Origin: Streptomyces sp. NBC_00286
GTDB lineage: Bacteria; Actinomycetota; Actinomycetes; Streptomycetales; Streptomycetaceae
Length of the DNA stretch: 64,000 nucleotides
Direction: 5' to 3'
Assembly: GCF_036173125.1 (NCBI RefSeq)
Contig: NZ_CP108054.1
Location: 4,960,001-5,024,000, forward strand
Positions 33,344 to 34,985 of the stretch are shown here, piece by piece; position 1 is the first letter of the stretch; every line of letters starts with the position of its first letter. The notes under the pieces were generated by a model. The model was not told the DNA's origin. It saw nothing but the letters and a program-made list of their open reading frames with translations, and did no database searches. Position numbers and translations under genes: made by a program.

Positions 33344-33532
33344 CTAGAGGGAGGTGACGAAGGCGGCGAAGGCGTCCGGGGTGACGGTGAAGGCGCCGGC
33401 TTCGGGGTTCTTGGAGTCGCGGACGGCGATGTGGGGGGTGAGGTCGGCGACCTCCACGCATTCGCCACCGGTGTTGCCGCTGTAACTCGACTTACGCCAC
33501 CGCGTGTTGGTCACGCCCTCGCTGGTCTCCAT
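33344..33532 (-). CDS. DUF397 protein
   Basis: The 62-residue product shows the whole DUF397 pattern: TRWRKSSYSGNTGGECVEVA, then HIAVRDSKNPEAGAFTVTPD and AFAAFVTSL. In Streptomyces these small proteins are encoded next to XRE-DUF5753 regulators such as WhiJ and probably modulate them. Its start overlaps the end of the regulator gene by 41 bases, so the two are co-translated. Confidence 0.95.
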   Translation of the reverse strand: METSEGVTNTRWRKSSYSGNTGGECVEVADLTPHIAVRDSKNPEAGAFTVTPDAFAAFVTSL

Positions 33533-34340
33533 AGCGTTCCTCCATTACGCGGGTGATCAGTGCCGCCGAGTTCTCCACGGAGAGGGCGGCACCCTGCAGG
33601 TGAGCGTAACGGGGTGCGGCTTCCCGGACAGTCTCCGGGTTGGCAGTCATGTGCCCCGAGATCAGGTCTTCCGTGTAGATGATGTCCGGGTCATCCTCGA
33701 AGCGCATGCTCGTGAACGATCCGATGAGGCTTGCGTGTTCACCAGCCTCGTACGGCAGCACCTGGATTCGCACCCACCGGCGGTCGATGCAGCCCAACAA
33801 GTGGGCGAGTTGGTTGCGCATGACCGTCCGGCCACCGATCGGCCGGTGCAGTGCGGCCTCGTCCAGTACGACCCAAGTCAGCGGCGGGTGCTCCCGGGAC
33901 AGGGTGCGCTGGCGTTCCATGCGGGCCGCCACCAGCTCCTCGAGCTTGCTCGGCATGCCCGTTGCCAGCACCGCGCGGGCGTACTCCTCCGTTTGCAGGA
34001 GCCCGTACACCAACTGCGCCTGGTACGTGCAGATGTAGGAGGCCCGCGCCTCCATGTCGGCGAACGGCTGGAACCAACTCGGCAGTTGCGACCGCAGCAC
34101 CAGCCCAACCAACCGCGAGAAGGCGCCCTCCGTCTCGAGGGCCACGTCCACCCGTTCGCTGAACTCCCGCGTCGGGACCTTGTGCGCCGTTTCGATCTGC
34201 CCGATCAGGGACCCGGTGCAGAACACGGCGGCGCCCAACTGCTTCTGGCTGAGCCCGGCGGCCTCGCGGTAGCGGCGGAGTTCCGCGCCGTAGTAGTCCA
34301 GCGGGCTCGCGCTGGGGTCGAGGTGGCGGATATTCACCAT
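33492..34340 (-). CDS. XRE-family regulator with DUF5753 domain (WhiJ-like)
   Basis: From the ATG at 34340 the product is 282 residues. An HTH covers about 15-75 (YYGAELRRYREAAGLSQKQL, FCTGSLIGQIETAHKVPTRE). The DUF5753 domain covers about 95-265 (LPSWFQPFADMEARASYICT, YQAQLVYGLLQTEEYARAVL, RPIGGRTVMRNQLAHLLGCI, VRIQVLPYEAGEHASLIGSF). It pairs with the overlapping DUF397 gene, and in intact loci also with a divergent RsbW-like ATPase. Here that ATPase (34440-34861) is broken. Confidence 0.95.
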   Translation of the reverse strand: MVNIRHLDPSASPLDYYGAELRRYREAAGLSQKQLGAAVFCTGSLIGQIETAHKVPTREFSERVDVALETEGAFSRLVGLVLRSQLPSWFQPFADMEARASYICTYQAQLVYGLLQTEEYARAVLATGMPSKLEELVAARMERQRTLSREHPPLTWVVLDEAALHRPIGGRTVMRNQLAHLLGCIDRRWVRIQVLPYEAGEHASLIGSFTSMRFEDDPDIIYTEDLISGHMTANPETVREAAPRYAHLQGAALSVENSAALITRVMEERYGDQRGRDQHAVA

Positions 34341-34439
34341 GTGGCGCCAACTCTCAAGTGCACACGGCACATCGTTTCGTTCCGGGTGTAGCCGAGCGTA
34401 ATCGGATCACTCCACTCTGGTGACGTTAATCACGCAACT

Positions 34440-34861
34440 GACCTTCAAGAGGCGGGTCTTGGCGCCAGGTATGGCGGCAACTTCACCGTCGGTGACCACT
34501 CGGCCCGGCACCTGCGCCGCATCCTCCGGGCGTATCTCATGGCATGGGAGATGCCCGAACTGATCGACGCGGCGGGCCTCGCGCTCACGGAACTGATCGC
34601 GAACGTCGTACGGCACGTACCGGGGCGGCGCTGCTCGCTGCTGATGCTGCGGACACCCGAGGGGCTGCGGGTCGAGGTGACGGACACGTGCCCTCCGCCA
34701 GTTCGTCGTCCACAGCTGTGGACGACGAACTGGCGGAGGGCGGCCGGGGCCTGCTGATCACCGAGGCGGTCACGGACCGCTGGGGCTGGCTGCCGCTGAC
34801 GGGCGGCGGCCGTACCGGGAAGACCGTGTGGTTCGAGTGCGACGCCAAGGCGAACGCCTGA
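34440..34861 (+). pseudogene. RsbW-like ATP-binding protein, frameshifted at a perfect palindrome
   Basis: The text is that of an anti-sigma-type HATPase: FTVGDHSARHLRRILRAYLM, LIDAAGLALTELIANVVRHV (N-box region) and LRVEVTDTCPP. It then continues in another frame as VDDELAEGGRGLLITEAVTD and RTGKTVWFECDAKANA. The frame change coincides with a 52-bp perfect palindrome (34690-34741). No good start codon exists in the first frame upstream of an internal ATG at 34539, so the 5' end may also be damaged. The intact relative would be about 140 residues and would complete the WhiJ-like trio. Confidence 0.8.
34690..34741. repeat. Perfect 52-bp palindrome inside the broken ATPase gene
   Basis: Arms of 26 bases with no loop. 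Each arm runs from GCCCTCCGCCAGTTCG to TCGTCCACAG at the centre, where CAG meets CTG. The right arm encodes the normal protein text (VDDELAEGG), so the left arm is the inverted extra copy. Confidence 0.95.
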
Positions 34862-34904
34862 CCGGCACGGTGGGGGCCGTGAACCGGTGGGCGACTGCAA
34901 GCGC

Positions 34905-34985
34905 GCCCGTCAGGAGCGCGGGGCTGTGTCAATTGGCGGCTCCGCCGCGTGGGCGGGACCAGCCACAACGAACCCGCAGCCGAGG
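34905..34985 (+). repeat. Intergenic hairpin repeat, copy E (no insert)
   Basis: GAGCGCGGGGCTGTGTCAAT, GGCTCCGCCGCGTGGGCGGG and ACCAGCCACAACG with an ACCCGCAGCCG tail. The reading frame of the next gene stays open through it, which tempts gene callers to start too early. Confidence 0.85.

What the first reader, a model, noticed from the sequence alone, without database searches (positions are those of the whole stretch)
34690..34741. Perfect 52-bp palindrome coincides with a frameshift in an RsbW-like ATPase gene
Seen: 26-base arms pair without loop or mismatch. The right arm encodes normal protein text (VDDELAEGG), and the ATPase reading frame changes exactly here. Known: long perfect palindromes are unstable in bacteria and often arise when replication switches template at a short inverted repeat. 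Inference: a template switch copied the right arm in reverse and broke the gene. It could also be a reversible on/off switch, or a sequencing fold-back artefact. The gene belongs to a WhiJ-like regulatory trio, so its loss may alter development.
Basis: partly seen in the sequence, partly recalled or inferred. Interest (0 to 1): 0.72.

Follow-up and report, generated by a model that had tools for sequence, protein, structure and literature searches.

The report
Copying slip at conserved DnaA-like site
In a Streptomyces bacterium, DNA copying seems to have slipped at a small conserved mirror-image site that looks like a landing pad for the replication starter DnaA, turning it into a longer perfect palindrome and breaking the regulatory gene around it.

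Summary
The palindrome is real: 26-nt arms, no spacer, 34690-34741, and it breaks an AbaA/RsbW-like HATPase gene (34425-34861). The nearest relative held (94% identical) has an open frame and only 12-nt arms; its strand already folds as an imperfect hairpin. Here 10 nt stand for its 8 nt and pair perfectly with the unchanged right arm: a quasipalindrome template-switch mutation, copied from the origin-proximal into the origin-distal arm, as leading-strand snap-back would do. The start codon, ATG or GTG in relatives, reads GTT here, so the gene is probably a pseudogene.

The centre is no accident. TCCACAGCTGTGGA is exact in 15 of 16 relatives, written with rare codons in a variable loop. It reads as two facing DnaA boxes. 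In 8 of 8 genomes with both on one contig, the gene lies 126-154 kb from dnaA. I infer a conserved origin-proximal DnaA site inside a coding sequence, which seeded the copying error and outlived the gene. DnaA binding is not shown. Assembly error cannot be excluded without reads. A switch by inversion is excluded, because inverting a perfect palindrome changes nothing.

The parts
34690..34741 (.). 52-bp perfect palindrome, 26-nt arms, no spacer
   Evidence: folds as one strand at -35.4 kcal/mol, z -9.8
34694..34703 (+). rewritten stretch of the left arm: 10 nt here, 8 nt in the sister; all 10 pair with the unchanged right arm
   Evidence: alignments
34704..34727 (.). 24-bp palindrome shared with the sister species (12-nt arms)
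34709..34722 (.). conserved core TCCACAGCTGTGGA, exact in 15 of 16 relatives
34706..34714 (+). DnaA-box-like 9-mer TCGTCCACA
   Evidence: motif match; binding not shown
34717..34725 (-). facing DnaA-box-like 9-mer (TCGTCCACA on the - strand)
   Evidence: motif match; binding not shown
34425..34861 (+). broken abaA/RsbW-like HATPase gene (probable pseudogene)
   Evidence: frame change, intact relatives; sister product matches PF13581
34425..34427 (+). position of the start codon: GTT here, ATG or GTG in relatives
33492..34370 (-). divergent XRE / DUF5753 (WhiJ-like) regulator gene
   Evidence: PF19054, PF13560
33344..33532 (-). DUF397 (BldB-like) gene
   Evidence: PF04149

Best explanation
The core TCCACAGCTGTGGA is a DNA-level-conserved pair of facing DnaA-box-like sites inside the coding sequence of an origin-proximal abaA-like gene (conservation shown; DnaA as the binder inferred). 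With its flanks it formed an imperfect hairpin. In this lineage a replication strand, most likely the leading strand coming from the origin region about 0.13 Mb away, folded back on the core, copied its own newly made right arm, and returned to the template at the shared GCCC (event type strongly supported; strand inferred). This replaced 8 nt by 10 nt, made the 52-bp palindrome perfect, shifted the reading frame and left both boxes in place. With the lost start codon the gene is now probably a pseudogene, while the DNA site persists.
For: Sister with an open frame, 12-nt arms and an interrupted hairpin. Right arm identical in both; 4 of 12 aligned bases plus a 2-nt gap differ in 34690-34703 against 19 of 411 elsewhere in the gene, P 0.0025 without counting the gap or the direction. 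The rewritten 10 nt all pair with the right arm, chance about 4e-6. 16 of 16 relatives have arms of 12 nt or less and an open aligned frame. Codons TCC, ACA, GCT, GTG kept in 16, 16, 15, 16 of 16 relatives, while ACA is 3.3% of 153 Thr and GCT 0 of 212 Ala codons elsewhere in these genes. DnaA-box match (S. coelicolor box in PMC4285127 Table 1); gene 126-154 kb from dnaA in 8 of 8 genomes with both on one contig; box-like 9-mers 69 in 464 kb near dnaA and 22 in 400 kb far. Quasipalindrome switching makes arms more perfect (PMC7202029, part 1 of 4 read) and is more frequent on the leading strand in E. coli (abstract of PMC6357072).
Against: No reads were available. No binding data for DnaA. Only two box-like sites here, not a cluster, and in the window and sister both are TCGTCCACA, not the TTGTCCACA listed for S. 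coelicolor. Most abaA-like relatives found lack the core. Of 18 other copies of the motif, 6 (7 if G027 is read as linear) lie more than 1 Mb from dnaA, and 4 of 19 genomes searched have no copy. The sister's other strand folds differently. dN 0.027 / dS 0.157 against the sister before the palindrome shows constraint, so any gene loss would be recent.
Confidence: 0.68

Rival explanations
1. Same template switch, but the core is conserved for another DNA-binding factor or as an mRNA hairpin, not for DnaA.
For: The core is palindromic, so many dimeric regulators could bind it; no binding test exists here. It lies beside an XRE regulator gene.
Against: The same motif occurs without an XRE/DUF397 gene in view at six other places looked at: two P450 genes, an FG-GAP gene, an unassigned gene, and two more, one of them in G009 with a third box. 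Motif copies lean towards dnaA.
Confidence: 0.2
2. The long palindrome is an assembly or sequencing artefact and the strain carries short arms.
For: Raw reads were not available; fold-back errors exist.
Against: The genome is one 9.85-Mb contig. The difference is a small replacement that ends in shared bases, not a long inverted copy, and an independent lesion (start codon) sits in the same gene.
Confidence: 0.06
3. A reversible on/off switch of the gene.
For: Frame change inside a repeat structure.
Against: Inversion of a perfect palindrome yields the same sequence. The start codon is also lost. No recombinase was looked for.
Confidence: 0.02
4. The 52-bp palindrome is a selected hairpin, for example a terminator or a stronger binding site, and not a neutral accident of copying.
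For: Long palindromes are common near dnaA in this genome, several around parS.
Against: It is inside a gene, breaks it, and the long form was seen in 0 of 16 relatives.
Confidence: 0.04

Closest known systems
Quasipalindrome-associated template-switch mutation (E. coli reporters; PMC7202029, PMC6357072)
   Same: An imperfect inverted repeat becomes a perfect one by copying one arm into the other, with a small net indel and a frame shift.
   Different: Natural case between species, seeded by a conserved core that looks like a protein-binding site; no experiment.
DnaA boxes outside oriC in Streptomyces (title of the 2006 J. Bacteriol. paper seen in a reference list; clusters H69, H24, D78 recalled)
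   Same: DnaA-box-like sites in the chromosome region around oriC.
   Different: Here only a pair, face to face, inside a coding sequence; identity with a published cluster not tested; binding not shown.
whiJ / bldB (DUF397) / abaA paralogue clusters (PMC10294661, passages)
   Same: HATPase gene next to an XRE (WhiJ-like) and a DUF397 (BldB-like) gene.
   Different: Here the abaA-like member is broken, and in this clade it carries the DnaA-like pair.

Membership tests
Quasipalindrome template-switch mutation | pre-existing imperfect inverted repeat | tested here: met
   sister and 15 further relatives, arms 1-12 nt; interrupted hairpin in the sister on one strand
Quasipalindrome template-switch mutation | change makes the arms more complementary, templated by the other arm | tested here: met
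   10 of 10 rewritten nt pair with the unchanged right arm
Quasipalindrome template-switch mutation | single event during replication, on a defined strand | not testable with these tools
   direction fits leading strand only by inference (for dnaA)
DnaA-box pair | match to the Streptomyces DnaA box | tested here: met
   matches the looser consensus YYVTCCACA (recalled); one base off TTGTCCACA in the window, exact on one side in several relatives
DnaA-box pair | conserved as DNA | tested here: met
   rare codons kept in 15-16 of 16 relatives
DnaA-box pair | near the origin | tested here: met
   126-154 kb from dnaA in 8 of 8 genomes
DnaA-box pair | binds DnaA | not testable with these tools
   no binding data
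Published S. coelicolor DnaA-box clusters | same place and several boxes | not tested
   paper not held
AbaA-like HATPase | HATPase_c_2 domain | tested here: met
   sister's intact product 43.1 bits over cut-off 27.4; the window's own fragment 21.5 bits, below it
AbaA-like HATPase | adjacent XRE/DUF5753 and DUF397 genes | tested here: met

The most novel reading that the evidence does not exclude
Short palindromic sites for replication and segregation proteins around oriC (facing DnaA boxes, parS) act as seeds on which template switching grows long perfect palindromes. In this genome one such growth destroyed the host gene of a conserved intragenic DnaA site, which survives as a replication-control element without its gene.
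Probability: 0.3. Interest if true: 0.7.

Novelty: new member of a known kind. Interest (0 to 1): 0.5.

Why it matters
It gives a clean natural example, with an ancestor-like and a derived state, of template switching breaking a gene. It also points to a conserved candidate DnaA site hidden in a coding sequence near the Streptomyces origin, so the effect of origin-flanking DnaA boxes on replication and development can be tested at one defined 14-bp site.

Tried and rejected
Rejected: on/off switch by inversion (inversion of a perfect palindrome is silent); operator of the neighbouring XRE regulator as the main reason for the core (the motif recurs without such neighbours; kept as part of a rival); pure chance.

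Led nowhere: the 2006 paper on Streptomyces DnaA-box clusters is not held. Paper searches listed no title on DnaA boxes inside coding sequence or on template switching in Streptomyces among the rows shown; I read listings, abstracts and passages, and part 1 of 4 of one paper. That is not proof of absence in print. Whether this is one of the published clusters was not tested.

Faulty or weak steps: one search used a start coordinate 4 nt off, so its codon counts and start-codon column are discarded; replace them. The start-codon pattern could only find NTG codons, so its 13 of 16 was biased, without that bias, finds ATG or GTG at the aligned start in 14 of 16 and, in the other 2 (L121, L124, alignment starts late), an in-frame GTG nearby. 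In one search the dN/dS over both gene halves failed; only the part before the palindrome is quoted. One search used rounded genome lengths; one search repeats it with contig lengths where I had them (G044 and G058 stay rounded): 12 of 18 read as circular, 11 of 18 read as linear. The sites are not independent (the P450 site is shared by G000 and G015), so these P values are optimistic. The codon test ignores shared ancestry. Rows dropped: L054 and L062 as copies of L010 and L120; the window itself was left out of the 16. dnaA was not sought in the draft genomes with the core (G024, G136, G259, G303, G358, G362); in the draft G416 gene and dnaA lie on different contigs. Whether parS palindromes are selected hairpins or template-switch products was not separated.

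Full report
Observation. The window lies in a single-contig 9.85-Mb genome (C1:4960001-5024000). The palindrome at 34690-34741 is exact and folds as one strand at -35.4 kcal/mol, z -9.8. By composition a 26-nt pairing is expected about 9e-8 times per genome. In 864 kb of this genome (464 kb around dnaA including the window, 400 kb far from it) it is the second-longest zero-spacer palindrome.

The gene. The sister's intact product matches HATPase_c_2 (PF13581), and the divergent neighbours are an XRE/DUF5753 and a DUF397 gene. This is the abaA / whiJ / bldB type of cluster described in PMC10294661 (passages read). In the window the N-terminal frame runs out of phase through the left arm, and the C-terminal part continues in another frame from the right arm. 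The start codon reads GTT at 34425; in 14 of 16 relatives the aligned codon is ATG or GTG, and the other 2 have an in-frame GTG nearby. Two lesions suggest a pseudogene. Against an old one: dN 0.027 and dS 0.157 relative to the sister in the part before the palindrome.

How the palindrome arose. A DNA search of 100 relatives and of 392 genomes drawn from the genus gave as nearest G416 (94% identity, locus L114); then the named S. scabichelini HC44 (L039, 87%), then G275 and G306 (80%). L114 has an open 159-aa ORF and L039 an open 142-aa ORF; in 16 of 16 relatives the aligned frame holds no stop. Arm lengths at the same centre are 12, 8, 8, 10, 8, 8, 8, 8, 8, 12, 8, 8, 7, 9, 7 and 1 nt, against 26 here. 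In the sister the coding strand already forms an interrupted hairpin with GCCC and GGGC at its ends paired; the other strand folds differently. Against the sister, 8 nt became 10 nt in the left arm, and all 10 pair with the right arm, which is identical in both. Within 34690-34703, 4 of 12 aligned bases plus a 2-nt gap differ; elsewhere in the gene 19 of 411 (P 0.0025). L039 shares bases with the sister in that stretch and has short arms, so the window is the derived one. This is what quasipalindrome template switching does (PMC7202029, part 1 of 4 read). dnaA lies at C1:5128054-5129094; if oriC is beside it, as usual in this genus (PMC4285127 passage, for the flanking rule), a fork meets the right arm first. 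A leading strand that snapped back after copying it would rewrite the left arm, as seen. The abstract of PMC6357072 reports that in E. coli the leading strand is the more mutable one for such switches and that DNA-protein crosslinks stimulate them. Strand and trigger are inference here.

Why the centre is there. In the abaA-like hits the loop between VEVTD and GGRGL looks highly variable, but one clade carries TCCACAGCTGTGGA there: 15 of the 16 relatives exactly, L122 with one change. The codons TCC, ACA, GCT, GTG are kept in 16, 16, 15 and 16 of 16, while elsewhere in the same genes ACA makes 3.3% of 153 Thr codons and GCT 0 of 212 Ala codons. That is constraint on DNA, not only on protein. 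With its flanks the core reads as two facing DnaA boxes: TTGTCCACA on one side in several relatives, TCGTCCACA on both sides in the window and sister, against the S. coelicolor box TTGTCCACA (PMC4285127 Table 1, passage). The looser consensus YYVTCCACA is recalled. In 8 of 8 genomes with gene and dnaA on one contig (G000, G275, G306, G049, G143, G009, G007, G118) the distance is 126-154 kb, on the same side of dnaA. In G275, G306 and G007 it is the only TCCACANNTGTGGA of the genome.

Is the motif tied to the origin? TCCACANNTGTGGA occurs 4 times in this genome, the backward control 0 times. TCCACAGCTGTGGA occurs in 25 of 61 genomes, the control in 1 of 61. In 19 further-examined genomes TCCACANNTGTGGA occurs in 15, the control in 1. 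Of 18 copies that are not this gene, 12 lie within 1 Mb of dnaA if contigs are read as circular (4.1 expected, P 9e-5) and 11 if read as linear (4.0 expected, P 4e-4); the rest do not (P values optimistic, see Tried and rejected). Box-like 9-mers number 69 in 464 kb around dnaA and 22 in 400 kb far away. TCCACA/TGTGGA pairs at 0-30 bp number 9 near and 0 far when convergent, 4 near and 1 far when divergent. The six other copies that I looked at sit in P450 genes of G000 and G015, an FG-GAP gene, a gene without a Pfam match, a stretch between TetR and DUF2252 genes of G009 with a third box, and a stretch of G015 where the copy is the centre of a palindrome with 17-nt arms. This fits DnaA better than a local operator, but binding is not shown.

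A wider pattern. Of 19 exact parS sites in G000, 7 have arms of at least 13 nt (the core is 7); in G416 6 of 19, in G306 3 of 17, in G275 3 of 19. Of 160 other zero-spacer palindromes with arms of at least 7 nt in the 864 kb, 4 reach 13 nt, the window's own among them (Fisher P 1e-5 for G000 against these). Arm sequences differ on both sides between species, which selection for hairpins, for example terminators, or repeated template switching could both give. The parS word is recalled; PMC7022226 (passage) gives TGTTNCACGTGAAACA. Of the six other DnaA-like pairs looked at, one has long arms and five have arms of 0-9 nt. This makes the seeding idea in the section on the most novel reading worth testing, no more.

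Verdict. The event is a new example of a known mutational kind. The added finding is the conserved, probably DnaA-binding, intragenic core that seeded it. My odds: template switch about 0.9; DnaA as the reason for the core about 0.7; the whole statement 0.68.

Noticed in passing
G000:C1:5043364, 5148963, 5149018, 5167485, 5189149, 5210693, 5237773 (outside the window): Seven of 19 parS sites are the centres of longer perfect palindromes (arms 13-24 nt), with like cases in three related genomes; terminators or template-switch growth.
   Followed up: partly
window 34883-34950: Dispersed repeat downstream of the broken gene: 44 other matching places in this genome, a lower bound as 40 of 517 first-look candidates were scored. 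The sister has no such stretch between the HATPase gene and the M20 peptidase gene.
   Followed up: no
G000:C1:5103941-5103996: A longer zero-spacer perfect palindrome (28-nt arms), no coding-like ORF over it by a simple GC3 test.
   Followed up: no
G000:C1:5108801-5109015: Five DnaA-box-like 9-mers within about 215 bp, some 19 kb from dnaA: a candidate DnaA-box cluster.
   Followed up: no
L166:2063 and L169:1614: The same facing DnaA-like pair lies in P450 genes of two species, there also encoding STAVEEL.
   Followed up: partly
L170:1781: In G015 another TCCACAGCTGTGGA is the centre of a palindrome with 17-nt arms.
   Followed up: no
G027:C1:6766704: A TCCACAGCTGTGGA copy that lies about 135 kb from dnaA if this contig is circular, the same distance as the gene studied here; context not looked at.
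   Followed up: no
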